Of a stretch of 64,000 nt of DNA, positions 9,447 through 60,037 are shown in pieces; position 1 is the stretch's first letter, and each line of letters opens with the position of its first letter. Origin of the DNA: Aquirufa lenticrescens (lineage in GTDB: Bacteria; Bacteroidota; Bacteroidia; Cytophagales; Spirosomataceae); NCBI RefSeq assembly GCF_019916085.1, contig NZ_CP049834.1:2122501-2186500 (forward strand), given 5' to 3'. The notes below the pieces were generated by a model. It searched no databases. It saw only the letters and a program-made list of their open reading frames with translations, and was not told the origin of the DNA. The position numbers were made by a program, and so were the translations under genes.

Positions 9447-9583
9447 CAGTGGTCAGTCGGCAGTATCCAGTAATCAAGTATCCAGTAATCAGTAATCAGT
9501 ATCCAGTAAACTGTATGTTAATTCATCTTTACTCTATACTCTCTAATCTATTTCCTGACTACTGTCCACTGACTACTGATTAC
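9447..9583. repeat. Degenerate heptamer array A beside dif
   Basis: The left part (9447-9510) is nine tandem units of CAGTNNN (CAGTATC and CAGTAAT recur, with one 8-bp unit). The right part (9528-9583) is eight contiguous 7-bp units: four CT-rich (TTTACTC, TATACTC, TCTAATC, TATTTCC) and four that are the reverse complement of the left type (TGACTAC, TGTCCAC, TGACTAC, TGATTAC). The halves can fold into a long imperfect hairpin. The array begins 7 bp after dif and supplies the last codons and stop of the convergent histidine kinase gene. Confidence 0.85.
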
Positions 9584-10946
9584 TAACGTGAAACGTTACC
9601 GTAAACTCCGTAAACGAATCTGGCACAGAAACCACTGAGATTTGGCCATTGTGTAATTGAACGATACGTTCAACGAGAGATAAACCGATGCCGTAGCCCT
9701 TAGAAGAGGCTGTATTTTCGCCTCTAAAGAACGGTTGGAATATGTAGGGTAAATCGTTCGCGGGGATGCCTTTTCCTTCGTTTCTAACGAAAATTTGTAT
9801 GGAATTTCCGGAATTCTTGAAGCTAACTTGCGCAGATTTGGATGGGCTGAATTTGCACGCATTCTCCATCAAATTCTTAATGGCCGTTAAAATTAGTTTG
9901 TCATCTGCCTTGATTAATAGCATTTCCTCGTCCTCTGGCATGTGTGAGGTGTCGATGCTGACTTTGTAGGCGGAGTTGAGTTTTTGGGTTAAACTTCTTG
10001 CTTCCCAAAGGATTTCGTCGATTCTCCATTCATTAAATCCTGCCTGGCTGTCGGATAAGCTTAGTTTATTCAATTCTAATAAAGATTCCGTGATCGCGGC
10101 TAATTCTTGGGTGTCTTCTAATACGGAGCTGATGGTATTTTTATAATCCCCAGTCTCTCTTTCTTTCAAAAGACTTACTTCTAATTGGGACGAAATTTTA
10201 GTTAATGGATTCTTTAATTCGTGTGAAACGTTCGCAATAAAGGTCTTTTGTAATTTAAAGGCGTTCTCAATGCGTTCTAATAATCGGTTGACCGTAGACA
10301 CCATCTTCCCTATTTCGTCCTCAAAATCAGGCGATTTGAGGCGTTCTTCCAGGCGTTTGGGCGATAATTTATCCACTTGTTGGATTACTTCAGAGATTGG
10401 ATTGACTGCTTGACCCGCAAAAAACCAGCCTGACAGCACTACAATGAGGATAAATAAGAGAAATAGCGCGATTAGGATGTTTTTTAAATCTTTCGCATTC
10501 TCCGCCGAATATTGATCCACTGCTCCCGCAAAAACGACTAAACGGCCCTGTGGCGTGGCGAAAACAGTACCAAGAACCTCGATATCTTCCCGTTGAAAGC
10601 GTATTTCTTGCTTTTGGCGGACTTGTTTAATGAGATCTACATCGATGTGGAGGTTGATGCTATCGTTCGAGGCGTAGATTCGCTCGTTGCATAAATCGTA
10701 TACCAAAATACTCTCCCGGTACAATAAATCGCGGTTGGTTTGCCCGATGATCCCCATTAATTTGGAGTCAACCTGGTTTACGTTGACCAATAGTTGAGCC
10801 GTTGTGTTCGCTTTTTGGCGTAAACGGCTATAAAATTTGTCCTTGTAATTCTCTTGCGTGAAGATGTAGATGACAAAATAGGATACGAATAAAATCGCAG
10901 AAACGAGGTAGGTAAACTGGTAGGTCAGCCTGGATCTAATCTGCAT
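9573..10946 (-). CDS. Two-component sensor histidine kinase
   Basis: A 457-residue membrane kinase: TM1 about 10-30, a periplasmic sensor about 31-153, TM2 about 156-178 (ALFLLFILIVVLSGWFFAG), a HAMP segment to about 232, and a HisKA domain with the phospho-acceptor H242 in NVSHELKNPL. The ATP-binding domain contains NLMENACKF, GKGIPANDLPYIFQPFFRG and GYGIGLSLVERIV. The response regulator gene is 2 bp upstream and is its probable partner. The C-terminal residues SNQ and the stop come from the heptamer array, so the original 3' end may have been altered. The signal sensed is unknown. Confidence 0.92.
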   Translation of the reverse strand: MQIRSRLTYQFTYLVSAILFVSYFVIYIFTQENYKDKFYSRLRQKANTTAQLLVNVNQVDSKLMGIIGQTNRDLLYRESILVYDLCNERIYASNDSINLHIDVDLIKQVRQKQEIRFQREDIEVLGTVFATPQGRLVVFAGAVDQYSAENAKDLKNILIALFLLFILIVVLSGWFFAGQAVNPISEVIQQVDKLSPKRLEERLKSPDFEDEIGKMVSTVNRLLERIENAFKLQKTFIANVSHELKNPLTKISSQLEVSLLKERETGDYKNTISSVLEDTQELAAITESLLELNKLSLSDSQAGFNEWRIDEILWEARSLTQKLNSAYKVSIDTSHMPEDEEMLLIKADDKLILTAIKNLMENACKFSPSKSAQVSFKNSGNSIQIFVRNEGKGIPANDLPYIFQPFFRGENTASSKGYGIGLSLVERIVQLHNGQISVVSVPDSFTEFTVTFHVSNQ

Positions 10947-10948
10947 AA

Positions 10949-11629
10949 TTATTCGTTTTTAAGGATATATCCTCTACCAAATTGGGTGTGAATCAACTTA
11001 CTAGAAAAGCCTTTATCGACCTTTTTACGCAAGTAATTAACATAAACTTCGATCAAATTCGAGCTATTTTCATCCTCTACTTCCCAAATATTCTCAGCTA
11101 TTTGAGCCTTCGAAATCACCATTTCTTGGTTTCTAAGGAAGTATTCCAGTAATTGAAACTCTTTGGAGGTCAAATTAATAGACTGTCCAGAACGCGTGAC
11201 TAATTTACTGATAAGATCCATCTCTAAATCTGCAAATTTCAGTACCTGTGCATCTAATTGAGTCTGAGATGAACGTTTTAATAATGCTTTAATACGGGCC
11301 AAAAACTCTTTAAAATCAAAGGGTTTGCCCAGATAATCATCTGCACCCGCATCAAAACCTAGTAGTTTGTCATCTGTAGTACTTAATGCAGTCAGCATTA
11401 AGATAGGTGTCTGAATTCCTTCTGCTCTCAACTGTTTACATAATTCAAGGCCATTGATACCTGGAATAATAATGTCTGATACAATTAAGGAGTAATTATT
11501 TCGCAAGGCTAATTGCTTCGCGATGGTCCCGTCATAGGCCACTTCCACCTCATAGCTGTTCTCTTCTAATCCTTGTTTCAGGGATTGAACAGTTTTAGGT
11601 TCGTCTTCTATGAGGAGTATTTTGATCAT
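10949..11629 (-). CDS. OmpR/PhoB-family response regulator
   Basis: A 226-residue DNA-binding regulator. The receiver domain (1-118) has the acidic pocket EDE at 8-10, phospho-acceptor D52 in IVSDIIIPG and K102 in GKPF. The winged-helix effector domain is at about 130-225 (LTSKEFQLLEYFLRNQ, then NLIEVYVNYLRKKVDKGF). It overlaps the upstream pyrophosphohydrolase gene by 4 bp (ATGA) and is followed after 2 bp by its kinase. All three genes are likely one transcript. Confidence 0.93.
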   Translation of the reverse strand: MIKILLIEDEPKTVQSLKQGLEENSYEVEVAYDGTIAKQLALRNNYSLIVSDIIIPGINGLELCKQLRAEGIQTPILMLTALSTTDDKLLGFDAGADDYLGKPFDFKEFLARIKALLKRSSQTQLDAQVLKFADLEMDLISKLVTRSGQSINLTSKEFQLLEYFLRNQEMVISKAQIAENIWEVEDENSSNLIEVYVNYLRKKVDKGFSSKLIHTQFGRGYILKNE

Positions 11630-12093
11630 TTTAGGATGGATTTCAAGTCCGCTGGAGAGTAATTAATTGACTTTAGTACTTTATTATCGGCCTTACGATA
11701 CACTTTCCAAACACCGTTTTCTTCTTTTATCTCCGCTTCTGTACCATCTTTATCTTGGTAAAATTTCACGGTATATTCAGCTTCTTCTAAGGATGCACAC
11801 GCTTTAGACATATTAGAACGCTGCACTTCATTGAATAATTCGACGAATTTTTCACCTAGTCCAAACTCTAAAACCGCCCCAGATAATACATATTGAAGAT
11901 CACAAAGTGCATCAGCTACCTCTACTAAATCATTAGCGGCTATCGCTTCTTTCAATTCATCTAATTCTTCTGCTAACAGGCTAACACGTAGATTGCAACG
12001 TTCTGCAGCAGGTATGGTGGGTTGATTAAGTATAGGGGCTCCAAAGGTCGTGTGGAATTGAGCCACCTGGTTCAATGAGTCTAGTTTTTCCAT
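11626..12093 (-). CDS. MazG/PRA-PH-like nucleoside triphosphate pyrophosphohydrolase
   Basis: A 155-residue all-alpha NTP pyrophosphatase-type protein. The metal-binding helix pattern is LLAEELDELKEAIAAND, followed by EVADALCDLQYVLSGAV (the EExxE and ExxD arrangement). A C-terminal extension (about 110-155) with KVLKSINYSPADLKSIL is common in the Bacteroidota version. The enzyme class cleaves (d)NTPs to NMP plus PPi, and the actual substrate is not evident. It is the first gene of the operon with the two-component system and lies directly beside the DnaA-box cluster. Confidence 0.82.
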   Translation of the reverse strand: MEKLDSLNQVAQFHTTFGAPILNQPTIPAAERCNLRVSLLAEELDELKEAIAANDLVEVADALCDLQYVLSGAVLEFGLGEKFVELFNEVQRSNMSKACASLEEAEYTVKFYQDKDGTEAEIKEENGVWKVYRKADNKVLKSINYSPADLKSILK

Positions 12094-12153
12094 TTTATGT
12101 ATTCAATTTATTAAAATTAAACAATTAATGGGTCTCTAGCAATAAGCGTTCTT

Positions 12154-12236
12154 TGTGGAAAATGTGGAAAACTGAAAATACAATTGTGCACAAGTGTGGA
12201 TAACTTGTGGATAACTCAAAAGGTTTCTGTGGATAA
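12154..12236. other. Cluster of DnaA-box-like 9-mers
   Basis: Five same-direction boxes lie in 83 bp of intergenic DNA: TGTGGAAAA at 12154-12162 and 12163-12171 (directly adjacent), and TGTGGATAA at 12195-12203, 12206-12214 and 12228-12236. TGTGGATAA is the exact complement of the DnaA box TTATCCACA. A related palindrome, TTGTGCACAA, is at 12184-12193. An AT-rich stretch lies at about 12094-12130. It looks like an origin, but gene directions and the dif site nearby argue that this is the terminus region. It may be a DnaA-titrating or regulatory cluster. Confidence 0.72.
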
Positions 12237-12266
12237 GTCCTGTTTTGTTTACAATTCTTATCTCAC

Positions 12267-12752
12267 TTATTGAGGTTTACTTTCAGAGAAAGTACCATCT
12301 GTATAAAAAATCAGTACTCGTTCAATCTTTTTAGCGAGATGAGCGGTAGTAGTTGGAGCTGACACCACTGGTTGGCTTGCTTTTGGGCTACTTTCTCTAG
12401 GGCGTCTGAGATTCGATTGTACGATCGTTTGTTCAGGTAAATTATTTTTAGGCGATTCTGGCGCGCTAGGTATAATGGCATCAAAAAGAGATGGAGTAGA
12501 TGCGACCGGAGAAGGAGCTGCTTTAGGAGCGGGTGCCGAAATAGATAAATCGCGTTTATCATCTAATAACTCTTCCGCGGGAATTTCAGGGAAAGCAATG
12601 AGAATCTTTTGTACGACATCTAAGCTAGGCTTATTTCTTCCTGAGAGAATGTGAGAGATACTACTACGAGGAATTCCTAAAGTATCCGCAAACTGAGATG
12701 CACTTAGTTTCTTTACTTGAATTAACAATTCGATCTTTCCGCTTAGATTCAT
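12267..12752 (-). CDS. XRE-family HTH regulator with long linker
   Basis: A 161-residue protein. The Cro/C1-type HTH covers about 5-62 (SASQFADTLGIPRSSISHIL). A Pro/Ala/Ser-rich linker with little predicted structure runs from about 70 to 135, and a short C-terminal motif follows (KKIERVLIFYTDGTFSESKP). The HTH-plus-linker-plus-terminal-motif form recurs in Bacteroidota but has no known function that I can name. Its own promoter is enclosed by a 15-bp perfect inverted repeat, which suggests autorepression. It lies between the DnaA-box cluster and cvfB. Confidence 0.85.
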   Translation of the reverse strand: MNLSGKIELLIQVKKLSASQFADTLGIPRSSISHILSGRNKPSLDVVQKILIAFPEIPAEELLDDKRDLSISAPAPKAAPSPVASTPSLFDAIIPSAPESPKNNLPEQTIVQSNLRRPRESSPKASQPVVSAPTTTAHLAKKIERVLIFYTDGTFSESKPQ

Positions 12753-12753
12753 T

Positions 12754-12808: not shown

Positions 12809-12835
12809 TTGAAATTTTAAGCAAATGAAATGAGT

Positions 12836-13710: not shown

Positions 13711-13728
13711 ATTTATTCTTGTTGTTGA

Positions 13729-14547: not shown

Positions 14548-16043
<1,496 letters not shown>

Positions 16044-27083: not shown

Positions 27084-27827
27084 ATGAAATACTTACTATT
27101 CTTTTTTGCCTCTATTTGCCTATTTAGCTGTTCCAATTCTTCCGAAGAAGAGAAACGCGAATCGAGCGCCTTCTTTTTACGTGGAAATGCGAAATGGAAA
27201 GAAAAAGAGTATCATGAGGCCATTAAATGGTATTCGGAGGCGATTGAGAAGCGTCCAGATTTCTCTGATGCCTATTATAACCGGGGTTTAGTGTTCCAAA
27301 TCTTAGAAAAGAATGAAGAGGCCTTAGCCGACTTTTCGAAGGCAACAGAATTGGATTCGAAATTCGCTCCTGCCCTCTTTAAAAAGGCGGAAATGCTTCA
27401 AACCTTACAGCAATCGGACGAAGCCGTAAATGCAGTAGAAACGTTGGTTAAAATTTTCCCTGATTCTGCCGCTAACTGGACCTTAAAAGGTGATATTTTA
27501 CTTCAAAAGGCCGATTTATCAGGTTCCTTATCTTCCTATGACAGATCTTTATCACTTGATTCGACTTCAGTAGAAACCTTGATTAATAAGGGCGTTGTAT
27601 TGCAAGAGATGAATGAAATCGATTTAGCGGAAGCTGTTTTCAAGAAGGCCTTGAAGTCAGGCAAATACCAAGATCTTTTGAATAATAACCTCGGTTACCT
27701 TGCTATTCAGCGAATGCAATGGGATTTAGCTGCTTCTTATGTGAAGAAAGCGTTGGAAAAGGATCCGAAAAATGCGTTGTATTTAAAGAATTGGGCCAAA
27801 ATTCAGGCTAAATCAAGCCTTAAATAA
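27084..27827 (+). CDS. TPR lipoprotein
   Basis: A 247-residue protein with a lipoprotein signal (MKYLLFFFASICLFSCS, with the lipidated Cys in LFSC). About five TPR units follow (residues 30-245, for example EAIKWYSEAIEKRPDFSDAY). It is probably anchored in the inner or outer membrane facing the periplasm and used for protein contacts. The partner is unknown. The 3' end overlaps the convergent menD gene by 15 bp, with no terminator between them. Confidence 0.85.
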   Translation: MKYLLFFFASICLFSCSNSSEEEKRESSAFFLRGNAKWKEKEYHEAIKWYSEAIEKRPDFSDAYYNRGLVFQILEKNEEALADFSKATELDSKFAPALFKKAEMLQTLQQSDEAVNAVETLVKIFPDSAANWTLKGDILLQKADLSGSLSSYDRSLSLDSTSVETLINKGVVLQEMNEIDLAEAVFKKALKSGKYQDLLNNNLGYLAIQRMQWDLAASYVKKALEKDPKNALYLKNWAKIQAKSSLK

Positions 27828-29405
27828 GGCCATATACTTTTTCAATTCTGCCGCGTTTTCTATCGAATTCGTGTGAATTTCTAGGAGCGCCGCTCCTTGG
27901 TTATGTAGGAAAGCGTTGAAGTCTAATTCACTTGGGTTCGAGGCAGAATAATAGCTTATTCCAGCGTCTTTGGCTGTATTTTCAGCGGTAAACCCTTGGC
28001 GTGTTTCCATAAATTCATCCAGTTCAGGAAGGTCTTTTGCTCCTTCTAGGTTGCGGAAAATGCCCCCGCCCCCATTATTAAAGACGATGATGCGCAAGTT
28101 CGCAGGAATGTAATGATTCCAAAGTGCATTCCGGTCGTATTGAAAGGCTACATCCCCAATGATGGAAATACATAACTTGTCTGTCTTTTGAGCGGCTCCT
28201 ACTGCTGTACTTAGGCATCCATCGATTCCAGAAGTGCCTCGATTAGAGAATACTTCGGTTTTTATGAATTTCGCCAATGTCCAGTTAATGTATCTGACAG
28301 CTAATGAGTTAGCGATATGTACTTCGGCTGATTCTTGCTCAATCGCCTCTGTTACTTGGTTATACAAATGTAACTCCGTCCATTTGGGTTGGGCGAAGAA
28401 TTCAGCTTGCAATGAAGTGATTTTGGCTGAATTCCAGGTGTTCCAAGATTTAGTAGTCCATTCAGCACCTTCCATAAAGCTTTCAGCATCTGTATTTACC
28501 ACGTGAGTCAAACACAAGAAAGGGTCTGGTCTTCCGATCGGATTCGGGTGAATGAGCCACGATTGTTTTGGCTTGTGTGAGCGTAAAAACTGCTTAATTC
28601 GCTTCGAAACAAAGGATTTCCCGAAGTGAATGTGCAAATCAGGTTGTAAGGCTGGCCATACTGATTCGTCGGCTAAGAGCAAATCGTGCGCAATCGTACT
28701 CCCGCAATTCGACGTCGCATCTCCTATTACTGGAATTCCGTACGCCGAAAGTGTTTCGAAGATCGAATTGTGTTCCATTTGGCCTACGGTCACTAGGATT
28801 TTTTCAGCAGAGGCTATTTCTTGGTTGAAATACGAAAAATCTATCAAATTCTCTACTCTATACTCTCTAATCTCTACTCTTTTTTCTGCTTTCGGTAAGA
28901 CAAAACCTGGCTCCGGATAAAACGGCTCACTAATGGGTACATTAATCTGTACAGGGCCTTTCGGTTCCGCTAAAGCAGTCAACGGAGCAGCAGAGCAATC
29001 ATCCGTTTCAAAATCAAAAAAGGCCTTTGCGTGCTTTCCAAATAGGTTTTCTTGGTAAATCGTCTGTCCATCCCATTGGCCAATCCACTCTTTGGGACGA
29101 TCAGCTGTTAAAACAATTAGCGGAACTTCTTGAAAGAAAGCTTCGACCACGGCAGGTGCAAAATTTAATCCAGCTGAGCCTGAGGTGCAGCAAAGTATGA
29201 CGGGACGACCCGTTTTAAGGGCGATCCCAAGACCAAAAAATCCTGCCGAACGTTCATCTGCAATGGAATAACATTTGAAACCGCCGTGGCGGGTTAAGGC
29301 GATCATTAAGGGGGCATTTCTGGAGCCTGGGCATATAACCGCCTCATTTACACCTTGTTGGTATAAAGAGTCTACAAGTTCGAAGATGCCTTTTGGAAAT
29401 GCCAT
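27813..29405 (-). CDS. menD: 2-succinyl-5-enolpyruvyl-6-hydroxy-3-cyclohexene-1-carboxylate synthase
   Basis: A ThDP-dependent enzyme of menaquinone synthesis that joins isochorismate and 2-oxoglutarate. The start is placed at the ATG at 29405 (MAFPKGIFELVDSL) because the longer frame opens inside the rpoD terminator hairpin. The protein has 530 residues. PGSRNAPL is at 26-33, and ADERSAGFFGLGIAL carries the conserved Glu. The ThDP site is IIGDVAFQYDRNALW with a later NNGGGGIF. Residues 174-185 (EKRVEIREYRVE) in the domain linker are encoded by a heptamer array, an unusual insertion that keeps the frame. No other men genes are adjacent. Confidence 0.93.
   Translation of the reverse strand: MAFPKGIFELVDSLYQQGVNEAVICPGSRNAPLMIALTRHGGFKCYSIADERSAGFFGLGIALKTGRPVILCCTSGSAGLNFAPAVVEAFFQEVPLIVLTADRPKEWIGQWDGQTIYQENLFGKHAKAFFDFETDDCSAAPLTALAEPKGPVQINVPISEPFYPEPGFVLPKAEKRVEIREYRVENLIDFSYFNQEIASAEKILVTVGQMEHNSIFETLSAYGIPVIGDATSNCGSTIAHDLLLADESVWPALQPDLHIHFGKSFVSKRIKQFLRSHKPKQSWLIHPNPIGRPDPFLCLTHVVNTDAESFMEGAEWTTKSWNTWNSAKITSLQAEFFAQPKWTELHLYNQVTEAIEQESAEVHIANSLAVRYINWTLAKFIKTEVFSNRGTSGIDGCLSTAVGAAQKTDKLCISIIGDVAFQYDRNALWNHYIPANLRIIVFNNGGGGIFRNLEGAKDLPELDEFMETRQGFTAENTAKDAGISYYSASNPSELDFNAFLHNQGAALLEIHTNSIENAAELKKYMALFKA
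28851..28885. repeat. Degenerate heptamer array B inside menD
   Basis: Five contiguous 7-bp units: CTCTACT, CTATACT, CTCTAAT, CTCTACT, CTTTTTT. They match the CT-rich units of arrays A (beside dif) and C (35.6 kb). The array lies within the coding region of menD and is read as residues 174-185 of the linker between the PYR and central domains, so the insertion appears tolerated. Confidence 0.8.
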
Positions 29406-29408
29406 AGC

Positions 29409-29433
29409 AAAAAAAAGCCTCATAAGAGGCTTT
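29409..29433 (-). terminator. Terminator between rpoD and menD
   Basis: Leftward reading gives stem AAAGCCTC / GAGGCTTT (arms 29426-29433 and 29414-29421) with TTAT loop and a run of eight Ts (29409-29416). It starts 7 bp after the rpoD stop. The menD ATG follows the T-tract after only 3 bp, so menD has no room for its own promoter here. Confidence 0.9.
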
Positions 29434-35531: not shown

Positions 35532-35557
35532 CTCGGCTATAATTCTGAATATGAAAC
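35511..35557. repeat. Perfect 22-bp inverted repeat at the 3' end of the dCMP deaminase gene
   Basis: The left arm 35511-35532 (last seven codons plus stop) and right arm 35536-35557 are exact reverse complements with a 3-bp TCG spacer. In RNA this is a 22-bp hairpin with no T-run. The right arm looks like an inverted copy of the gene end. It abuts heptamer array C. Confidence 0.93.
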
Positions 35558-35560
35558 GAG

Positions 35561-35668
35561 AGTAGAGATAATAGAGTATAGAGCATAGATAATACGCAAA
35601 CGATTAGAATCGGATTATTTCTCTCTACTCTATTATCTATAATCTCTACTCTATCTACTCTCTCTACT
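35561..35668. repeat. Degenerate heptamer array C with internal inversion
   Basis: Left block 35561-35595: AGTAGAG, ATAATAG, AGTATAG, AGCATAG, ATAATAC. Right block 35623-35668: CTCTACT, CTATTAT, CTATAAT, CTCTACT and longer slipped units. The right block is approximately the reverse complement of the left, so the array folds into a long hairpin. It sits exactly between two perfect palindromes at the ends of convergent genes. Confidence 0.85.
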
Positions 35669-35670
35669 CT

Positions 35671-35714
35671 ATTAAAACAAAAGGGGATCGAATTCGATCC
35701 CCTTTTGTTTTAAT
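35671..35714. terminator. 44-bp perfect palindrome at the 3' end of slyD
   Basis: The arms 35671-35692 and 35693-35714 are exact reverse complements with no spacer (centre GAATTC). Leftward from slyD it gives a stem with GGGGATCG, then TTTTGTTTTAAT, so it can act as a terminator. It includes the slyD stop codon and one base of the preceding His codon. It is the partner of the 22-bp inverted repeat at 35511-35557. Confidence 0.9.
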
Positions 35715-39706: not shown

Positions 39707-39812
39707 AGATTATAGATAAGAGAGCATAGAGAGGAGATAATGGTGAATGGTGAATGGTAAATTTTCCCTTTGGACTTCAGACTCATTCCCTCCGGACTAT
39801 CGACTAGCGACT
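39707..39812. repeat. Degenerate heptamer array D
   Basis: Fifteen units keep a 7-bp phase over 106 bp with one 1-bp slip: AGATTAT, AGATAAG, AGAGCAT, AGAGAGG, AGATAAT, GGTGAAT twice, GGTAAAT, TTTCCCT, TTGGACT, TCAGACT, CATTCCC, CCGGACT, ATCGACT, AGCGACT. Three sub-families (AG-rich, GGTGAAT, NNNGACT) sit side by side. It lies between divergent genes (DUF4197 and M28 peptidase). Confidence 0.87.
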
Positions 39813-42318: not shown

Positions 42319-45300
42319 TTAATATTGATAATCTATAAAAATATTATACCGAGGCAATCCAAAATTGCCGAAATTTACATCGTTAAAAAATAATAGATTC
42401 CCTGAAAGACCAAATAAATTTTTTGATATCCTTTCGTTATTAATTGTAACTGAAATATGATTATTAGATATAGGAATATGTGATAAAGGTAATATAATAG
42501 ATTCCGATCCTACTGAATAAACATTAGGATTTGTACCGATTAAATCATCTCCTTTTTGTGACCCTCCAGCGATCCCAAACTCTTCTGTAAAAAAATTAAA
42601 GTTCCCTGATAAGACAGAATTTCCTCCAATTTTTATATCTCCCCCTGCAGGTAAATTCAAAACACCATCTGTTCCAAATGTCCATATTTGAGTAGATGAA
42701 CTAGTGGTCCCTGTTAATATAGAAAACCCATTTTCTGTCGCCCTCGTATCAAATCCAAAGTTAACTGTTCCTGAGATAGAGCCTGAAGTGATGGTGCCAT
42801 CCGGGAAAACTAGTGCTCCATCTTTGGTAAAATCCCATTCGTTAAAAGTTATGGAATTATTTGATGTACTATTTGTCTCAATCAAAAATGAAGTATTGTC
42901 AGAGGCAATAAAACCAGTTGTACCCTCACCTTCTGGAGCTCCAAATTTCGAACCATCTGGAAATTCTAATTTGCCGTCTACTCCAAATGTCCAATAAAAT
43001 GCACTCATATTGGGACTATCTGAAATTCCCACTTGAAATCTTTTATTTTCTGTCGTAATTCCAAATCGATAAGTGTCATTTTCAATGTAATCTCCACCAG
43101 GAAATATCATATTCCCATCTAAACTAAATGTCCATGTTTTAGGATTTGCAGGATCATCACCATTTATGATTTTAAATCCATCATTATTCCCACCTGTTAA
43201 TTCAAAATAAGTTGAACCTGAATAATTCCCAGCTAATGTTGTTCCATCAGGAAAAGTTAACATACCTTCAGAATCATATGTCCAACTGTTGAAAATTTCA
43301 CTTTCTAAATTAGTTTCTGTGGTTATCAATACTTTTCCTCTATTTTCATCTCCAGAAATTCGTACACTTGCAACTTTATTTACATTCTCAGTTAATTCAC
43401 CGCTACTTAAGAAAATACCGCTATTACTTAAAATCGTAAAAGTTGAAATATCTTCCTCAAGTTCAAATTTACCCATTACACTTCCATCTGGAAAAGATAA
43501 CACTCCTTGAGAATCAAATTGCCAAAAGTTTTCCTGCTCATCTGAATCTAAGTCTCGAGTCCTCATAATTATAGTACCTTGGTTGCCCTGTTGGATAATA
43601 CCAATTCCAGCATTTATAGTTATTTCATCTTCAAAAGTCTGGCTACTTTGTAAAATAATACTTGTAGGGCTATTTATTTCAAAAGCTGAAAAATCTTCAT
43701 TTAGAGTATATTTGCCCAATGTAGTCCTATCAGGAAAGACAAGTTTTCCATCATCTTTGAATGTCCAATAATGATCTTCCTCTTCTGAAGTCGTTTTTAA
43801 TTCGATGTATCCGCCATTTTTTGATCTAATACTAAATATATCTTTTAATTCGGCCTCTTGATCGCTTATATAGGGGAAAATTCTGGAACCGTCGGAAAAT
43901 CGTAATTTCCCGTCAGCGGTGTATTTCAGTTCGTGTTCTCTAGGATCAGATTCCCCGTATTCAAAATTTTCAAAGTCAACGGTACTTGTTTTAATTGAAA
44001 AATCTGTATCGGGCTTTAATTGAAAAACGGTTTCCGATGCATTACCACTTCTAACTTCAGTTCCATTTGGGAGAATTAATTTATTAGACCAAATATCAAA
44101 CTCCCATCCATTTGTATCTTCAGATGTCGTTTTCCCAATACTTACGAAAAGGTCGTTATAGATATTTAATCCATTATATTGACTTAATGGAATTGGCAAT
44201 CCTTCCATATACGAATTATTGGAACCTGTAAGGTTTATGCGATTCGCTGTTAGTCCACCCTCTATGGCTTGATCTCTATGAAAAAGATTGGATTGATCTA
44301 CCCTGGCATAAGCTGCTTCTGCAGTGCTTACATCTAGTTTATTATCTAAGGCTGTTTGAGTCGCCGTACTAACGGGTTTATCTACATCCGCTGTATTATC
44401 CACGTTACCCAATCCCACTTTTGACTTGTCAATTCCTGTAGCCAATTTAGCATTTGTAACTGCTAAATCTGCTAGATGTCTGGTTAATATTCCTCCATCT
44501 TGTACTCCTCCAGAATTTACGAGGCCGTCCACATAGGTCTTCACTGCTTTTTGAGTCGGGAATAAAATATCACTTGTTTCATTAGCTCCTAAATCTGTTG
44601 CTATGGATTTGTTTGCTACATTTTCTTTTGTTGCAACAGTAGTAGAAAATGTCTCCGTTGAAACTTTCGTGTCTAATGCTTCCTGAGTCGCTGTACTAAT
44701 TGGTTTTGCTAGGTCAGTAGTATTCGCTACCTCTGAAAGACCTACCATTAATTTTGTAATACCAGAAACGGTTCCAGTAAATGTGGGTGATTCTAAGGGA
44801 GCTTTTAATGCTAGATCTGTCGCATTTGCCTTAAGTTCTAGGTCAGTTACATTTGCTTTTGTAGCAACCGTGGTTGAAAAGGTAGCCGTAGACACTTTGG
44901 TATCTAGCGCTTCTTGAGTCGCCGTACTAATTGGTTTTGCTAAGTCAGCAGTATTTGCTACTTCTGAAAGCCCTACCATCGATTTAGTGATACCAGATAT
45001 AGTTCCGGTAAATGTTGGGGACTCTAAAGGTGCTTTTAGAGCGACATCTGTCACATTTGCTTTCGTAGCCAAAGTCGTAGAAAATGTTGCTGATGAAACC
45101 TTCGTTTCTAATGCCACCTGCGTCGCCGTACTAATCGGCTTCGCTAAATCGCTCGTATTATTAATTTGATCCACTCCTATAGCCGTTTTCAAAGCTGAGA
45201 TAGAAGCTACACCTGTTCCTCCTTTGGAAGCAGATAACACGCCATCTACGTTATCTGCGTTAACTCCATTTGCGTAATAGGCAAATGGTACGGATTGTAA

Positions 45301-45660
45301 ACGGGTGGTTCCCATGGCTACAAAGCTAGTTCCTCCAGCGGGATCCATTTCGACTTTTAAGAATTTAGGGTTGATTTTCCAATTGATGTCCGTGAAGTTT
45401 CCCGTTTTTGAGATTTGGGTTCCATCGCCGATTACGACGGAAAATATGCCTTGGGCGTTAGTGGTGACCTCTTTAGATTCCACGTATTCCACCGTTCCTG
45501 TTTCAGAGCCTTGGATGACAGAGAAGCGGAGGCTGATTTTCTGAGTGGCTAAAACTACACCTGAGGAGTTTCTGCCAACGCCTTGGAAGTTGATGCCATT
45601 GTTTTGGGAAAAGGCTAGGACAGAAACGAATAATAAAAGGAACGTAAGGAATTTTTTCAT
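42319..45660 (-). CDS. Giant secreted protein with phage-tail-fibre-like repeats
   Basis: An 1113-residue protein with a signal peptide (FLTFLLLFVSVLAFSQ). Residues 20-130 form a domain common in Bacteroidota exported proteins (INFQGVGRNSSGVVLATQKI, then RLQSVPFAYYANG). Residues 160-450 hold tail-fibre-like repeats (KAPLESPTFTGT; MVGLSEVANTADLAKPISTA; VGLGNVDNTADVDKPVSTAT). Residues 500-1040 hold about nine repeats of the type W.F..DG.L.FPDGT, a pattern also seen in myovirus structural proteins. There is no T9SS C-terminal domain and no chaperone-type auto-cleaving end. A surface fibre or adhesin is the likely role. It overlaps the T9SS gene by 1 bp. Confidence 0.75.
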   Translation of the reverse strand: MKKFLTFLLLFVSVLAFSQNNGINFQGVGRNSSGVVLATQKISLRFSVIQGSETGTVEYVESKEVTTNAQGIFSVVIGDGTQISKTGNFTDINWKINPKFLKVEMDPAGGTSFVAMGTTRLQSVPFAYYANGVNADNVDGVLSASKGGTGVASISALKTAIGVDQINNTSDLAKPISTATQVALETKVSSATFSTTLATKANVTDVALKAPLESPTFTGTISGITKSMVGLSEVANTADLAKPISTATQEALDTKVSTATFSTTVATKANVTDLELKANATDLALKAPLESPTFTGTVSGITKLMVGLSEVANTTDLAKPISTATQEALDTKVSTETFSTTVATKENVANKSIATDLGANETSDILFPTQKAVKTYVDGLVNSGGVQDGGILTRHLADLAVTNAKLATGIDKSKVGLGNVDNTADVDKPVSTATQTALDNKLDVSTAEAAYARVDQSNLFHRDQAIEGGLTANRINLTGSNNSYMEGLPIPLSQYNGLNIYNDLFVSIGKTTSEDTNGWEFDIWSNKLILPNGTEVRSGNASETVFQLKPDTDFSIKTSTVDFENFEYGESDPREHELKYTADGKLRFSDGSRIFPYISDQEAELKDIFSIRSKNGGYIELKTTSEEEDHYWTFKDDGKLVFPDRTTLGKYTLNEDFSAFEINSPTSIILQSSQTFEDEITINAGIGIIQQGNQGTIIMRTRDLDSDEQENFWQFDSQGVLSFPDGSVMGKFELEEDISTFTILSNSGIFLSSGELTENVNKVASVRISGDENRGKVLITTETNLESEIFNSWTYDSEGMLTFPDGTTLAGNYSGSTYFELTGGNNDGFKIINGDDPANPKTWTFSLDGNMIFPGGDYIENDTYRFGITTENKRFQVGISDSPNMSAFYWTFGVDGKLEFPDGSKFGAPEGEGTTGFIASDNTSFLIETNSTSNNSITFNEWDFTKDGALVFPDGTITSGSISGTVNFGFDTRATENGFSILTGTTSSSTQIWTFGTDGVLNLPAGGDIKIGGNSVLSGNFNFFTEEFGIAGGSQKGDDLIGTNPNVYSVGSESIILPLSHIPISNNHISVTINNERISKNLFGLSGNLLFFNDVNFGNFGLPRYNIFIDYQY
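44311..45183 (-). repeat. Tandem coding repeats of the fibre-like gene
   Basis: This part of the gene encodes residues about 160-450. The block with SPTFTGT, SGITK.MVGLSEVANT, DLAKPISTATQEALDTKVST and FSTTVATK occurs twice in near-identical form, with partial copies on both sides. The high identity suggests recent duplication and possible length variation between strains. Confidence 0.75.
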
Positions 45661-54732: not shown

Positions 54733-57194
54733 TATTGAGGTTTTGCGAGTAAGTTAGCTAGTAATCGGTAGGCACCTGGAACGCCTGCCGGTAATTCACG
54801 GAAGAAGACCAATCCGGTATAAATGAATTGACCTTTTCCGTATTTTGTCACAGCGATGTTTCCCTTGTTTTGGGATTCACCAGGATCTGAAAATCCTAAT
54901 GGAAACTCAAAATGAGGGTCAGTTGTTTCAGCGGTATAAATACTGCGTTCTTGAATCCAATCCCTAAAGTCGTTTTCGCTGATTTTATTAGGACTATTCA
55001 ATAGCGGATGAGTAGGCAGCAGGAATTCCGGCTTAGCCTCTTCTTTCGTAATCCGGTTACGCGACACTAATAAGGGATAAGGCGACATGCTCGACTTCAT
55101 GGGGCCTAAGAAACTGGCGGTATTGTATTGTACCACGTAATTGCCGCCATTTTCGATGTATTTCATGATTTCTGAATAAGCGTTTTCCCAATAGTCATTC
55201 GTGTTGTAAGCACGCACGCCTGTTAAAACCACATCGTATTTCTGCAGATTCGCTGCCGTTAAGTCTTTCTCCGCTAAGAAGTCCACCTCGTAGCCCATTT
55301 GCTTTAATGCCTCAGGTACTTTATCGCCGGCGCCTTTGATATAGCCTAAGCGATTTCCTTTTTTCGCGAAATCAATGTGCAGTAAGCTTAAGTTCACGGG
55401 GGTGAAATAGCGTTGCGTAGGGATGTGTGGGTATTCGATGGTTTGCAAGGTCAAGGAATCTACCCAGTTGTCAGTTCCGGATGAAATGTGCAGTTGGATG
55501 TTGCTCGATAGTTTACCTAGCGGTACCGATGCCTCAGTAAAGGAAATAGGCCATTCGCGCTTCTCTCCTGCTTTCATTCCGTCTTTTACTGGGATGTTTG
55601 CCAAAACCGATGCTCCCGACTTTACCTCGATTTTACCTGGCTTTAAGGCCGCAAGCGCTGTGATGGAGAGGTTAGTGGTTTTCGTTGCCTTGCTTCCTTT
55701 AGGTAATAATACCACGTTCGAACTCAAGCTAAAGACCGTTTTAGGGGTCACGGCAATCGGTTGAAGAATTTCCCCTTTCACTGGATCGATGATCAATTCT
55801 TGTACGGGTTTCTCTAGCGAAAATTCTTCTCCTCCAATCATAAAGGTGGCTTTTGCCGTATAGGCAGGATCCACTTTTGCTTGACCAATTTTTTGCTGGT
55901 CACTGACATTAAAGTGTCCCGTGGCTTTCGCTTCTTGTATCCAATAAGGTTGTGTGATAGGCGCGGAGGCCGTAATACTGCGATTGAATGGATATTTTTT
56001 ATAGGGTTCTAAAGTGCCCTTAATGGTCGAATCTATACCTGCGAAGGAAATCTTCACATTTTCTACCCGAATAGGTGCGCGAACAATAAACTCCGTCTTA
56101 ATCGGAAGTTTTTCTCCTACCGCTACGATGCCTTGTGAAGTTGTAGCTCCGAGGTAAATCCCGGCAGCATTGACTATCCAAGCATTGATTTCGTTGATTT
56201 TCTTCTGTGTCCAAGGGCTGCTAGGTAGCGCTTGGATGGATTTTTTTAAGCTGATTAGAGCCGAAATGCTCTCGTAAGGTTTCGCTGGATTGTAGGCTTT
56301 TATGATGGGTTCGATAAGTGCGTCGATGGTTGGATTCACCCGATTCCAAGAAGCATCAATGCCATCCCACAAGTATTCTTTAGGAGCATCACCGCCTAAA
56401 GTGGCGAAGTATTCGGTACTTCTTCCGCGATCTACCGCAAAGCCAAAACCTTGGGATTTGTGTTGGCTACGACTGAAAGCGGCTAGTTCGCCGGTGCTTT
56501 GGCCTAAAAAAGGCAAATAATCGCCTATGTTGACTTTAAATTGAGAATCTGAGATGGTTGAATTACCGGTAGAACCCGGGAAACGGAACGTATTCCACAG
56601 TAAGCGTTTCGCCTGCCAAACGTCCACTCCCTTTTTCAATTGTTCCGGGAACATCTTGGGATCTGCCGCTGCCTTATAAGCTTCAATGGCCAGTGCCGCG
56701 GAGGCAGAGTGATGTCCGTGTCCAGCCCGCGCATCCGGAGGAAAACGCGTGAAAATGATATCAGGACGTGTTTTGCGAATGACCCAAACTAAGTCTGAGA
56801 GAATCAGTTGCTTGTCCCAAAATGCCAAAGCCTCATCCGTCGACTTCGAAAAACCAAAGTCAAAAGCGCGCGAAAAATATTGATTTGCGCCATCGATTCT
56901 CCTAGCCGCTAACAACTCTTGTGTTCTAATTAATCCTAAGGGCACACCTTGCTCGTCGCCGATAAGGTTTTGGCCTCCATCTCCCCTAGTACACGCAAAA
57001 TAATTCGTCTCCCAATGTTGCTGCTGGGCGAACCACGTCAACATGTGCGTGCTTTCATCATCTGGGTGAGCTGCCACGTGTAACACGGAGCCGAGTACGC
57101 GTAATTTCTGCAAATCTTCGCCTAATTGGGCTGATGTGCGTTGTTGAGCTAAAACTGGAAAGGCCAATAAGGCGAAAAGGATGAGTTTTTTCAT
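54732..57194 (-). CDS. Large exported PIG-L family deacetylase
   Basis: The start is placed at the ATG at 57194 (MKKLILFALLAFPVLAQQ, a signal peptide), which overlaps the upstream TAA, giving 820 residues. The PIG-L/LmbE domain has the zinc motif AHPDDE at 42-47 and HGHHSASAALAIEA near 165. Beyond about 280 come beta-rich domains, and a C-terminal glutamine-amidotransferase-like region follows (GAGDKVPEALKQMGYEVDFL; YNTASFLGPM). PIG-L enzymes remove N-acetyl groups from amino sugars. It overlaps the acylase gene by 1 bp. Confidence 0.9.
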   Translation of the reverse strand: MKKLILFALLAFPVLAQQRTSAQLGEDLQKLRVLGSVLHVAAHPDDESTHMLTWFAQQQHWETNYFACTRGDGGQNLIGDEQGVPLGLIRTQELLAARRIDGANQYFSRAFDFGFSKSTDEALAFWDKQLILSDLVWVIRKTRPDIIFTRFPPDARAGHGHHSASAALAIEAYKAAADPKMFPEQLKKGVDVWQAKRLLWNTFRFPGSTGNSTISDSQFKVNIGDYLPFLGQSTGELAAFSRSQHKSQGFGFAVDRGRSTEYFATLGGDAPKEYLWDGIDASWNRVNPTIDALIEPIIKAYNPAKPYESISALISLKKSIQALPSSPWTQKKINEINAWIVNAAGIYLGATTSQGIVAVGEKLPIKTEFIVRAPIRVENVKISFAGIDSTIKGTLEPYKKYPFNRSITASAPITQPYWIQEAKATGHFNVSDQQKIGQAKVDPAYTAKATFMIGGEEFSLEKPVQELIIDPVKGEILQPIAVTPKTVFSLSSNVVLLPKGSKATKTTNLSITALAALKPGKIEVKSGASVLANIPVKDGMKAGEKREWPISFTEASVPLGKLSSNIQLHISSGTDNWVDSLTLQTIEYPHIPTQRYFTPVNLSLLHIDFAKKGNRLGYIKGAGDKVPEALKQMGYEVDFLAEKDLTAANLQKYDVVLTGVRAYNTNDYWENAYSEIMKYIENGGNYVVQYNTASFLGPMKSSMSPYPLLVSRNRITKEEAKPEFLLPTHPLLNSPNKISENDFRDWIQERSIYTAETTDPHFEFPLGFSDPGESQNKGNIAVTKYGKGQFIYTGLVFFRELPAGVPGAYRLLANLLAKPQ

Positions 57195-58558
57195 TAGCTT
57201 AACATGTTTCGGTTCCACGGTCCACGGTAATTTCTTTCTAGAAGAGCGGTTGCTTCCGGGTCATTTAACACCGTTTTTGTTCCTGGGTCGTAGGAAAGTG
57301 GTCGCCCTAATTTCATCGAAAGATTCGCCAGAATGCAAGATGCGGTGGAAATGTGGCCCTCAGAGATGTCTGCAATAGGTTTTGAACTTTTATCTATCGC
57401 AGCTAAGAAATCCAGCATGTGTCCACGTGTGGCCGGTGCCGCATTTAGTTCGATGCGATCCTCTTTCAAATCTTCCGGATATTTCTCTTTCTCATATACC
57501 ACGTCCATATGCAATTTCTCGCCTTTGGGATCCGTAGGTGTGAAATCGTACTTCATTGTGCTCATTCGCAGGGTTCCTTTTTCTCCATAAATGGTTAAAC
57601 CCCACGGATATTCTGGATCTGGAGGAGTGCCCCAGCTTCTATGTTGCCAAACACAATTCAAACCATTGTATTCAAAAACAGCTGTTTGCGTGTCAGGGAT
57701 GTTGGATTTGCCCTCTTTTTGGACATAGATCCCTCCCTCTGAACTTACGCGGTTAGGCCAGCCTAAATCTAGCATCCAGCGCGCCGTATCGAACATGTGG
57801 ATGCACATATCGCCCATAATTCCATTTCCATATTCCTCAAACGTTCTCCACCAGCGGGTGTGCGGTAAACCGTCATAAGGACGCAATGGCGCAGGTCCGG
57901 TCCACATTTCGTAGTCAAAATAGTCTGGAACGGCTTGGACTGGCGGATTACCATTATTGCGCATGTGGTAATAGCAATACATTTCTACGTGTGCCACTTT
58001 ACCTAAAAGACCTTTATCGATGATTTCTTTTTTGGCCTGGATTAAATGAGGCGTGCTTTTACGCTGTGTCCCCACCTGAACCGTTTTACTATATTTTCTA
58101 GCTGCAGCCACCATCGCCTCGCCTTCTAGCACATCGACCGAAATAGGTTTTTGGACATAGACATGGGCTCCAGCTTTCACTGCATCAATCATCTGTAAGG
58201 CGTGCCAGTGATCCGGGCTTCCTACAATGGCGATGTCTAATTCATTTTCCTTTAATAGTTGGCGGTAATCGCCGTATAATTTCGGCGTTTTGCGTGATTT
58301 CTGACGCGCAGCCACGAGCTTACCCGCTTCCGTTAACATATTTCGATCTGGATCGCACAGAGCCACCACTTCTACAGGTACAACCTGCATCAGACGGAAT
58401 AAATCGCTCTTTCCATACCAGCCGGCGCCAATTAAGGCCACTCGGTAAGGACGTGTTGGATTCACTAAATCTAATCCATAAGCGCCAAAAGTAGACAAAG
58501 CCAAGGCGGCCGATGCCCCTTTCATAAAATGTCTGCGGTTAATGTTGAATGTTTTCAT
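57194..58558 (-). CDS. Tat-exported Gfo/Idh/MocA oxidoreductase
   Basis: A 454-residue NAD(P)-dependent oxidoreductase. The N-terminus INRRHFMKGASAALALSTFG is a twin-arginine export signal. The Rossmann motif VALIGAGWYGKSD is at about 39-51. DIAIVGSPDHWHALQMIDAV and HVYVQKPISVDV (with the conserved EKP-type Lys) follow, then a C-terminal alpha/beta domain. Such periplasmic enzymes act on sugars or glycosides with bound NAD. It overlaps GH30 upstream by 4 bp. Confidence 0.92.
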   Translation of the reverse strand: MKTFNINRRHFMKGASAALALSTFGAYGLDLVNPTRPYRVALIGAGWYGKSDLFRLMQVVPVEVVALCDPDRNMLTEAGKLVAARQKSRKTPKLYGDYRQLLKENELDIAIVGSPDHWHALQMIDAVKAGAHVYVQKPISVDVLEGEAMVAAARKYSKTVQVGTQRKSTPHLIQAKKEIIDKGLLGKVAHVEMYCYYHMRNNGNPPVQAVPDYFDYEMWTGPAPLRPYDGLPHTRWWRTFEEYGNGIMGDMCIHMFDTARWMLDLGWPNRVSSEGGIYVQKEGKSNIPDTQTAVFEYNGLNCVWQHRSWGTPPDPEYPWGLTIYGEKGTLRMSTMKYDFTPTDPKGEKLHMDVVYEKEKYPEDLKEDRIELNAAPATRGHMLDFLAAIDKSSKPIADISEGHISTASCILANLSMKLGRPLSYDPGTKTVLNDPEATALLERNYRGPWNRNMLS

Positions 58559-59862
58559 AGGATGATCGTTATGACTGATTCAGCCGGTATTTCTAGGTTT
58601 AGTTTTTCTACGCTCAGGTTCTTTTTGCGGCCCTCGTTTTGGACTAATAATACTGTTTTTCCATCTGGACGCTTGAAAGCTGCAGCCTGAATTCCTTCCG
58701 GCACTTCGATTCCTAAACGTACAGAGCCAGCCGGTACAAATCGCGCTGCTTGCATAACAATATAATAAGATTGATTGCGGATGATATCCTGACCTGATAT
58801 GGTTAGCGCACCTAAACATTCCGTGCAACCACCAGGTGTATGAGGCCCATAGCTAGGATCATTCGCTAAATTCCATTCAATGGCCGTTTTTGCATGGTTA
58901 TTCATCGCGCCTAAAATGACATTCTTCACATGCCACATAAAGTCGCCCGTAAAATCACCTTTATACCCCGTCCACTGTTCCGTAAAATAGAGGTCTTTAT
59001 CCGGATGCGCCGCTTTCACTTTGCTTAGGGCTGAAATATCCCCATTGTACAAGTGAAAGGCTGACCCACTCACATATTGCTTTGCTTCTGCATCGTTTAA
59101 TAGATCGATGGCGTATTCTGGATGATCGCAATTGTGATCATAGACGATTATTTTAGTTGAAATATTTCGCTTTTTGAAAACGGGTCCTAAAGCCATTTTG
59201 ATAAAATTCGCCTGCATCTGTGAGCTCATGTACATACTTGGATTATTACCAGGATGAAGGGGCTCGTTTTGGGGTGTTAATGCCCAAATGGGTATTCCCT
59301 CTTTTTCCATCGCTTGAATGTAGTTTGCGAGGTAATTCGCATAGGTTGTATAGTGTTTTTCCAAAAGCGATCCACCTTTGCTCTCCCCATTATCCTTCAT
59401 CCAGGTGGGTGGAGACCAAGGCGTGGCCATCAATTTTATCGCTGGGTTAATCGCTAAAATTTGCTGTAAAACAGGAATTAGATCAGCTTTTGAGGGCTCT
59501 AAGCTGAATTTTTTGGGCTTGTCCTCATAGGAAAATACAGTGGCGTCTAGATCTGTAGCCCCTATGCCAATTCTCAAAACGGAGATTCCGTTTTTGCCAA
59601 ATAGCTCCTGCAGTAAAGCAGCTCTTTTCGTGGGCTCTAATTGCTGAAATAATTGGGCGCTACCGCCGGTTAACGTGAATCCGAATCCATCGATGCTTTG
59701 AAAGGTCTGTTCTGGATGAAGGACTATCTTTGCCCCACTGAAATCACTCGAAAGTTGATCGGTCTTTTGAAAAAAGGATTTCTGTTTAGGAAGGCTAAGA
59801 AAGGTTTCTGTTTGGGCAAAACAGAAAAGAGGCAAGCTTAGCAGCAGCAATAGTATTTTCAT
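58555..59862 (-). CDS. GH30-family glycoside hydrolase (glucosylceramidase-like)
   Basis: The start is placed at the ATG at 59862 (MKILLLLLSLPLFCFAQ, a signal peptide), giving 435 residues. The TIM barrel has the acid/base Glu in ALTPQNEPLHPGN (E200) and the nucleophile Glu in LYFTEQWTG (E295). SIDGFGFTLTGGSAQL and ATPWSPPTWMKDNG are typical of GH30 subfamilies with beta-glucosidase/glucosylceramidase activity. A small C-terminal beta domain follows (RKKNLSVEKLNLEIPAESVI). It is the first gene of the catabolic operon. Confidence 0.92.
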   Translation of the reverse strand: MKILLLLLSLPLFCFAQTETFLSLPKQKSFFQKTDQLSSDFSGAKIVLHPEQTFQSIDGFGFTLTGGSAQLFQQLEPTKRAALLQELFGKNGISVLRIGIGATDLDATVFSYEDKPKKFSLEPSKADLIPVLQQILAINPAIKLMATPWSPPTWMKDNGESKGGSLLEKHYTTYANYLANYIQAMEKEGIPIWALTPQNEPLHPGNNPSMYMSSQMQANFIKMALGPVFKKRNISTKIIVYDHNCDHPEYAIDLLNDAEAKQYVSGSAFHLYNGDISALSKVKAAHPDKDLYFTEQWTGYKGDFTGDFMWHVKNVILGAMNNHAKTAIEWNLANDPSYGPHTPGGCTECLGALTISGQDIIRNQSYYIVMQAARFVPAGSVRLGIEVPEGIQAAAFKRPDGKTVLLVQNEGRKKNLSVEKLNLEIPAESVITIIL

Positions 59863-59892
59863 AGGTTTAAATTTCATTAAAGATATCGATTA

Positions 59893-59931
59893 TTTACAAA
59901 AAAATAAACCGCCTTTTTTAGGGGCGGTTTA
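59893..59931 (-). terminator. Terminator downstream of the SulP gene
   Basis: Stem TAAACCGCC (59905-59913) / GGCGGTTTA (59923-59931). Reading leftward it is followed by TTTTTTTG. It lies about 95 bp after the SulP stop, beyond heptamer array E, and about 30 bp before the GH30 start region. Confidence 0.85.
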
Positions 59932-59944
59932 AAGTTAGGAAAAG

Positions 59945-60037
59945 AGTCAGGGAGTCAAATAGTCAGGGAGTCCGAAGTCGTTAGTCTGAAGGAAAAAAGA
60001 CCTCCGGACTCAGTCCCTTCGGACTATTTTCCTCCGG
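59945..60037. repeat. Degenerate repeat array E (AGTC/GACT type)
   Basis: AGTC begins at 59945, 59953, 59961, 59969, 59976 and 59983, so the period is 8,8,8 then 7,7. From about 60001 the complement type appears (CCTCCGGACT, CAGTCCC, TTCGGACT, TTTCCTCCGGA). The array folds back on itself, shares the GACT and CCGGACT words with array D, and supplies the last codons (SGGK) and stop of the SulP gene. Confidence 0.8.

What the first reader, a model, noticed from the sequence alone, without database searches (positions are those of the whole stretch)
9447..60037. Dispersed family of degenerate 7-bp tandem repeats at five loci
Arrays at 9447-9583, 28851-28885, 35561-35668, 39707-39812 and 59945-60037 all keep a 7-bp (sometimes 8-bp) phase although the units differ (CAGTNNN, CTNTACT, AGATAAT, GGTGAAT, NNNGACT). 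Different unit types sit side by side in one array, and most arrays contain an inverted half that can fold back. Array D keeps phase for 15 units. They have no spacers like CRISPR and no gene of their own. The pattern recalls short tandemly repeated heptamers of cyanobacteria, but I know no described family like this in Cytophagales.
Basis: seen in the sequence. Interest (0 to 1): 0.78.

Follow-up and report, generated by a model that had tools for sequence, protein, structure and literature searches.

The report
Shuffled 7-letter DNA words after genes
A freshwater bacterium (Aquirufa) follows many of its genes with runs of varied seven-letter DNA words; related species keep them at the same gene ends but use different words, a new twist on a known but unexplained kind of bacterial repeat.

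Summary
Period 7 is sharply and specifically enriched between genes of this Aquirufa genome: 20 of 190 gaps in a 464-kb sample, 0.1 in shuffles. Arrays A, C and D are real. B lies inside a MenD-like gene, E keeps mainly 8 and 15-16 bp, and D is two opposed blocks, not 15 units in phase. Heptamer repeats in Bacteroidetes, cyanobacteria and Xanthomonas are already published.

Three findings go beyond what I saw in print. (1) Arrays sit after gene 3' ends with the purine-rich word on the sense strand: 51 of 56 orientable 3' arrays in two related genomes. (2) Sites persist between species while words are replaced: one gap holds five word families in seven genomes. (3) Neighbouring units are no more alike than random draws from the genome's own word list: 33 of 284 identical, 37.9 expected, against plain slippage.

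Reverse transcriptase and Y1 transposase do not track the arrays. Best reading, unproven: near-neutral satellite-like DNA tolerated in 3' flanks and rewritten by in-register template switching between arrays, favoured by transcription of purine-rich repeats.

The parts
9445..9584 (.). Array A: CAGTNNN arm (+), inverted AGAGTAT-type block, inverted CAGTNNN arm; its right end encodes the kinase C-terminus and stop (...VSNQ*)
28850..28893 (-). Array B: AGAGTAG-type words inside the MenD-like coding gene 27813-29423 (-); other words at the same place in relatives
35558..35670 (.). Array C: AGAGTAT-type arm (+) and facing arm (-) in a convergent gap, followed by a terminator-like hairpin (about 35674-35711)
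39707..39812 (.). Array D: AGAGAGT then GGTGAAT arm (+), facing (T)AGTCNN arm (-), in a divergent gap
59945..60037 (.). Array E: GAGTCAGG / AGTCCGAAG words of 7-8 bp with a facing CCGGACT arm that reaches the coding end of the SulP-type gene

Best explanation
The arrays belong to a genome-wide, near-neutral, satellite-like repeat class living mainly in 3' flanks. A typical site is: gene stop, heptamer arm with the purine-rich word on the mRNA strand, often a terminator or small GC hairpin, then a second heptamer arm facing the first. Shown here: period 7, 3'-sense position, inward arms, fixed sites, replaced words, 7-bp unit indels and whole-arm swaps. Inferred: arms are extended and rewritten by replication or repair template switching that jumps, in 7-bp register through shared 3-5-bp cores, between arrays across the genome; transcription favours the observed strand because purine-rich nascent RNA can hold an RNA:DNA hybrid (R-loop) near the terminator and expose a copying end; runs of identical units are unstable and are lost, leaving mixed vocabularies; selection keeps arrays out of promoters and most coding sequence, so they persist mostly at convergent gene ends.
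For: Orientable 3'-side arrays are sense in 35 of 38 (this genome) and 16 of 18 (A. antheringensis). Adjacent arrays judged by purine content face inward 17, outward 0, same way 11; 27 of 55 pairs could not be judged. Gaps with arrays: convergent 19 of 58, tandem 9 of 137, divergent 1 of 98. 68 of 81 orthologous gaps have no array in either species and 55 of these keep exactly the same length, while none of the 13 array gaps does. Different words at the same site; one arm kept and the other replaced at genome position 2003313. Phrase sharing between loci above chance for AGA words (trigrams 17, expected 5.2 +/- 2.5) and a partial block order (AGA to GGT 9:1, CAGT to CCGGAGG 7:0) fit copying between loci. 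Identical neighbours 33 of 284, 37.9 expected, and only 4 loci with 3 or more perfect heptamer copies in 744 kb, fit loss of perfect repeats.
Against: CAGT phrases are shared between loci hardly above chance (bigrams 74, expected 62 +/- 9; trigrams 4, expected 2.5), which long-tract copying would not give. No strain-level data, so no rewriting event was seen. No R-loop or RNA data. Facing arms are not always centred on a hairpin: 8 of 30 inward pairs have a stem of 13 or more. Sense polarity and 3' position could equally reflect a function. Gene sets, one genome pair and my own word list limit the counts.
Confidence: 0.4

Rival explanations
1. Functional 3' untranslated element: unstructured, purine-rich, stop-rich repeats on the mRNA are selected, for example as a landing pad for an RNA-binding protein, protection of the mRNA end, or stop codons in all frames after the gene; the exact words are free to drift.
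For: 3'-sense position; sense purine share of the first 50 nt after the stop 0.61 in array gaps (43 flanks) against 0.48 in gaps without (105 flanks) and 0.51 in between (15 flanks); stop triplets above dinucleotide shuffles on the purine strand in five of five genomes, in G012 by only 1.4 sd; arrays supply the stop codons of two window genes.
Against: Several word families in one genome and replacement between close species; nothing in such a function demands a 7-bp step; stop excess is modest, absent on the other strand in G000 and G012, and inflated by repetition; whole lineages lack arrays at the same gaps.
Confidence: 0.25
2. Ordinary heptamer microsatellites made by polymerase slippage, with later point mutation.
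For: Heptamers are reported as the commonest long simple repeat in bacteria; homogeneous arrays exist in other Bacteroidota (G278, 27 of 27 identical neighbours in the fetched loci; G026, 15 of 26 with 5.3 expected); one threefold 21-bp unit in this genome; one-unit indels between species.
Against: In this genome identical neighbours are 33 of 284 against 37.9 expected for random draws from the pool; the same discrete words recur at dozens of loci; the core is fixed while endings vary.
Confidence: 0.15
3. Miniature mobile elements: facing arms act as terminal repeats around a hairpin and are moved by a transposase.
For: Composite modules with facing arms and a recurring GGAATC-hairpin junction; block order.
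Against: No array-bearing gap unique to this genome among 81; no fixed ends or target duplications noticed; Y1 transposase absent from G000, G019 and G012. Other transposase families were not searched.
Confidence: 0.1

Closest known systems
TAACTGA heptamer direct repeats (MacGregor 2015, PMC4679880; abstract, introduction, passages and Bacteroidetes section seen)
   Same: 7-bp tandem, dispersed, mostly intergenic, patchy between relatives, present in Bacteroidetes; shares the CAGT core; other heptamers beside some sets.
   Different: [quoted passage not shown] here mixed vocabularies at 3' ends.
GGGAATC / GGGGA(C/T)T heptamers of Xanthomonas and Nostoc (Rehm 2015, PMC4692102; passages and Discussion seen)
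   Same: 7-bp; [quoted passage not shown] divergent gaps avoided; mostly between the same genes in sister species but varying in length and sequence; inverted pairs.
   Different: One G-quadruplex-forming word per genome; here several word families without G-tracts of that kind, and the word itself is replaced between species.
Cyanobacterial short tandemly repeated repetitive (STRR) heptamers (recalled; Calothrix example mentioned in PMC4692102)
   Same: Several tandem heptamers per genome, dispersed between genes.
   Different: Not compared by sequence here; polarity and neighbour statistics are not known to me for them.
REPIN / RAYT elements (definition recalled; PMC3116915 seen in a search listing only)
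   Same: Short dispersed repeats, often as facing pairs with hairpins.
   Different: Tandem 7-bp arms; no Y1 transposase found in G000, G019 or G012.

Membership tests
Bacterial heptameric tandem repeats (STRR / long SSR class) | 7-bp tandem periodicity, dispersed, mostly intergenic | tested here: met
   20 of 190 gaps, shuffles 0.1; 50 of 57 arrays in gaps
Bacterial heptameric tandem repeats (STRR / long SSR class) | Units alike within an array, as slippage gives | tested here: not met
   33 of 284 identical neighbours, 37.9 expected; 4 loci with 3 or more perfect copies in 744 kb
TAACTGA repeats (MacGregor) | Tandem TAACTGA as the repeated word | tested here: not met
   Of 160 CAGTNNN units, one TAT and two other T-A endings; no TAACTGA pair seen among the runs
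TAACTGA repeats (MacGregor) | Mostly just upstream of start codons | tested here: not met
   44 of 50 gap arrays lie nearer a 3' end
GGGNATC quadruplex repeats (Rehm) | G-rich strand on the coding strand downstream of ORFs; divergent gaps avoided | tested here: met
   35 of 38 sense (purine-rich strand); 1 of 98 divergent gaps
GGGNATC quadruplex repeats (Rehm) | G-tracts able to form quadruplexes | tested here: not met
   Main words CAGTNNN, AGAGTAN, GGTGAAT, AAAGCAN lack runs of three G; occasional CAGTGGG units only
CRISPR array | Long repeats separated by unique spacers | tested here: not met
   Contiguous 7-bp units without spacers
REPIN / RAYT | Y1-type transposase in carrier genomes | tested here: not met
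   PF01797 absent from G000, G019, G012; present in G015
Reverse-transcriptase-made repeats (retron, DGR or similar) | RT gene tracks the arrays | tested here: not met
   PF00078 absent from array-bearing G015, G005, G002, G006, G007 (the last three are 83-86% complete)
Miniature inverted-repeat element | Precise insertion with target duplication and empty sites | tested here: inconclusive
   No gap with an array only in this genome among 81; nearest empty case is a far relative, G009

The most novel reading that the evidence does not exclude
A dedicated writing activity, primed or guided by transcript 3' ends, builds arrays from stop codons into the gap, one 7-nt word at a time, from a genome-specific vocabulary (a fixed 3-5-base core plus a short list of endings). 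The vocabulary changes between species while the 7-nt step and the sense-strand polarity stay fixed: in effect a bacterial analogue of RNA-templated or untemplated end-tagging, acting on chromosomal 3' flanks.
Probability: 0.1. Interest if true: 0.9.

Novelty: new variant of a known kind. Interest (0 to 1): 0.55.

Why it matters
Heptamer repeats have been noted in cyanobacteria, Xanthomonas, Beggiatoaceae and Bacteroidetes without an accepted explanation. In this genome the neighbour test argues against slippage as the sole cause, and the strong 3'-sense polarity, matching that reported for an unrelated heptamer in Xanthomonas and Nostoc, ties the phenomenon to transcription or to mRNA. Aquirufa offers close species with and without arrays, so 'what writes heptamers?' becomes testable by resequencing and RNA-end mapping.

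Tried and rejected
Reverse-transcriptase link: rejected; the RT of this genome matches retron/defence RT models. G019 was not in that search. Y1/RAYT link: rejected. Rfam: two tRNAs in the window, nothing on the arrays. CAGT as a uniquely favoured core across the phylum: weakened, since 116 of 296 genomes have exact CAGT arrays but the reversed control is also non-zero in roughly 70 (my count by eye); within the genus the control is non-zero in all twelve CAGT-bearing genomes too, usually lower. A universal hairpin between arms: rejected, 8 of 30 pairs with a stem of 13 or more. Gene-presence association with array-poor genomes: not tried beyond two families. Word cores were chosen by eye; the block-order scan used overlapping patterns, so its AAAG/AGA (11:15) and CAGT/TAGTC (3:3) rows are not usable. 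Gaps whose flanks did not both map were dropped and not counted. The column headed 'p7segs_in_IGR' counts whole loci. My notebook holds slips corrected here: 13 of 24 genus relatives (it is 12), a dif-like site 'letter for letter' (it varies at the edges), GTAGAAT as a sixth word (it is GAATGTA rotated).
Full report
WHERE IT IS. The window is part of a 2,505,188-base single-contig genome. Its histidine kinase beside array A is 97.8% identical over the aligned part to that of Aquirufa antheringensis 30S-ANTBAC. Long aligned DNA blocks of the two species are collinear at 85-94% identity, with two short blocks at 66% and 76%. The window genome is therefore an Aquirufa.

IS THE SIGNAL REAL. In 464 kb (window plus 20 stretches of 20 kb), 190 gaps of 40 bp or more were scored for self-match at each period. 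Period 7 gave 20 gaps; 20 sets of dinucleotide shuffles gave 0.1 on average. Periods 14 and 21 gave 15 and 7 as harmonics; all other periods from 3 to 24 gave 0 to 4. One search, the first run, gave 21 of 191 with a baseline of 1 because it counted one gap of N. CAGTNNN alone gives 82 forward and 59 reverse matches in the genome against 1 and 0 for the pattern read backwards; overlapping matches in one array count separately.

WHAT THE ARRAYS ARE MADE OF. One search lists arrays in the sample. At least six word families occur: CAGTNNN, AGA(G/T)NNN, GGT(G/A)(A/G)(A/G)T, AAAG(C/A)AN, CAAAGNN and (T)AGTCNN/AGTCCGGAGG. Each has a fixed core and a short list of endings. For CAGT, 160 units in 43 runs are led by AGT 32, AAT 20, AGA 20, ATC 18, GGA 14, GGT 11, AGC 10 and GGG 7 (this set includes loci fetched because they carry CAGT arrays).

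NEIGHBOUR TEST. If arrays grew by slippage, a unit should resemble its neighbour. Identical neighbours in this genome: CAGT 15 of 117 (11.5 expected from the genome pool), AGA 13 of 114 (14.6), GGT 5 of 37 (9.4), AAAG 0 of 16 (2.4); together 33 of 284 against 37.9. The clear exception is a threefold 21-bp unit, which lifts the CAGT lag-3 count to 17 of 42 (4.1 expected). In A. antheringensis the families range from 5 of 18 (7.2) to 5 of 28 (3.9) and 5 of 16 (3.5), on small samples. Other genomes differ: G278 is homogeneous (27 of 27, from overlapping loci), G026 is intermediate (15 of 26, 5.3 expected), and G227 behaves like this genome on a small sample (2 of 21, 1.9 expected). Runs need exact cores 7 bp apart, so arrays with damaged cores are left out.

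POSITION AND POLARITY. In 744 kb of this genome 57 arrays were found; 7 lie inside ORFs of 80 codons or more or at edges. Of the 50 in gaps, 44 lie nearer a gene's 3' end; of the 38 of these that purine content can orient, 35 have the purine-rich strand on that gene's sense strand. A. antheringensis gives 35 arrays, 31 in gaps, 24 nearer a 3' end, 16 of 18 orientable ones sense. The two genomes share sites and are not independent. Gaps with arrays: convergent 19 of 58, tandem 9 of 137, divergent 1 of 98; in A. antheringensis 8 of 23, 10 of 71, 1 of 31 (all). Neighbouring arrays in nine Aquirufa genomes, judged by purine content alone, face inward 17 times, outward 0, same way 11; 27 of 55 pairs could not be judged. 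With my word list, in 464 kb of this genome, the counts are 13 inward, 1 outward, 7 same way. Control: sense purine share of the first 50 nt after the stop is 0.61 in array gaps (43 flanks), 0.51 in intermediate gaps (15) and 0.48 in gaps without arrays (105). Arrays reach into coding ends: the kinase ends ...VSNQ* and the SulP-type protein ...YSGGK* in array sequence.

SITES STAY, WORDS CHANGE. Against four close relatives, 19 of the 22 window gaps without arrays could be compared in at least one; lengths are equal or nearly so, the largest difference being 173 against 150 bp. The four array gaps (A, C, D, E) all vary. The gap of array C (35532-35709), between the same two genes, holds AGAGTAT words here, TTCAAAG in G019 and G007, AAAGCAT in G012, GAATGTA in G015 and (in another rotation) G005, and TTAGACG in G006: five families in seven genomes; G009 has almost no gap. 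At the gap of array A, 15 of 27 loci that could be bounded on both sides reach a period-7 score of 11 and 12 do not; 2 of 29 could not be bounded. The words there are CAGTNNN (this genome, L097-L100), TAGTCNC (L102, L120), TAGTCCG/GAAGTCC (L101) and TTRGACR (L105, L106, L115, L118, L136). Over 81 gaps mapped to A. antheringensis, arrays are in both in 9, at threshold only there in 4 (this genome scores 9, 10, 8 and 5), and in neither in 68, of which 55 keep exactly the same length. At genome position 2003313 the left CAGT arm and hairpin are kept apart from one 7-bp unit, while the right arm has changed from CTTTATGC to AACTTTGA words. Array B, inside the MenD-like gene, is likewise replaced by CTTTGTG words in A. 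antheringensis.

DISTRIBUTION. Exact CAGT arrays occur in 116 of 296 Bacteroidota genomes; the reversed control is non-zero in roughly 70 by eye, so CAGT itself is not unique. Within the genus 12 of 24 relatives have CAGT arrays at up to 1 mismatch and 12 have none; some of the latter, such as G015 and G005, carry other heptamers.

WHO WRITES THEM. Reverse transcriptase (PF00078) is found in G000, G010 and G012 among the 17 genus genomes of that search, but not in array-bearing G015, G005, G002, G006 or G007; the last three are incomplete. The one in G000 matches retron and defence RT models. Y1 transposase (PF01797) is absent from G000, G019 and G012, clear in G015, G017, G020 and G024, and weak in G001, G004, G008 and G009. 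Neither tracks the arrays.

MECHANISM. Shown: period, vocabulary, neighbour independence, polarity, fixed sites, replaced words, one-unit indels and an arm swap. Inferred: spread and rewriting by in-register template switching between arrays, favoured where a purine-rich transcript can hold an R-loop near a terminator, with loss of perfect repeats and purging from promoters. For copying between loci: AGA three-unit phrases shared 17 times against 5.2 +/- 2.5 and block order. Against it: CAGT phrases are hardly shared above chance. A functional 3' element is the main rival; stop triplets are in modest excess on the purine strand in five of five genomes, in G012 by only 1.4 sd. R-loop biology is recalled, not tested.

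LITERATURE. Seen: abstract and introduction, passages and the Bacteroidetes section of PMC4679880; passages and Discussion of PMC4692102; two passages of PMC4060949. Mrazek 2007 is known only through these; the cyanobacterial STRR work is recalled. Searches listed no paper whose title or abstract start describes mixed-vocabulary heptamers in Cytophagales or the neighbour test; that speaks only for an open-access library. Rehm et al. report for another heptamer the same polarity, avoidance of divergent gaps and site conservation with varied content, so those features are not new in kind.

The gap count was corrected from 21 of 191 to 20 of 190, the genus count from 13 to 12 of 24, the word count at one gap from six to five, and A. 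rosea (L125) was moved to the loci with an array. None of these changes the odds.

Noticed in passing
window 9410-9440: A palindromic 31-bp site beside array A looks like the chromosome dimer resolution site dif (E. coli dif recalled); its core TTAACATAATATAAATTAT is in 26 of 27 related gaps, so array A lies next to the likely replication terminus.
   Followed up: partly
window 28850-28893: A MenD-like enzyme carries a heptamer array in its coding sequence (around residues 176-191), with other words at the same place in relatives: a hypervariable linker.
   Followed up: partly
L037, L042, L047, L050, L144, L177: Small GC palindromes with a GGAATC border (for example TTGGAATCGCC...GGCGAT) recur next to heptamer arms and look like a second dispersed element.
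   Followed up: partly
L167 1096-2481 (-): Reverse transcriptase of this genome matching retron/defence RT models, with a 244-aa neighbour that matches no PADLOC model.
   Followed up: partly
G150, G158, G173, G329: Some distant Bacteroidota have many TGACNNN-type arrays (the reversed control word), so other lineages use other cores at high copy.
   Followed up: no
L021 around 1-300 from its end, minus strand: One CAGT array holds a threefold AGT-ATC-AGA unit (21 bp), the one clear slippage-like expansion in the sample.
   Followed up: no
window 44617-45060: A 231-bp direct repeat of about two copies (81% match) inside the 1113-aa ORF 42319-45660 (-).
   Followed up: no
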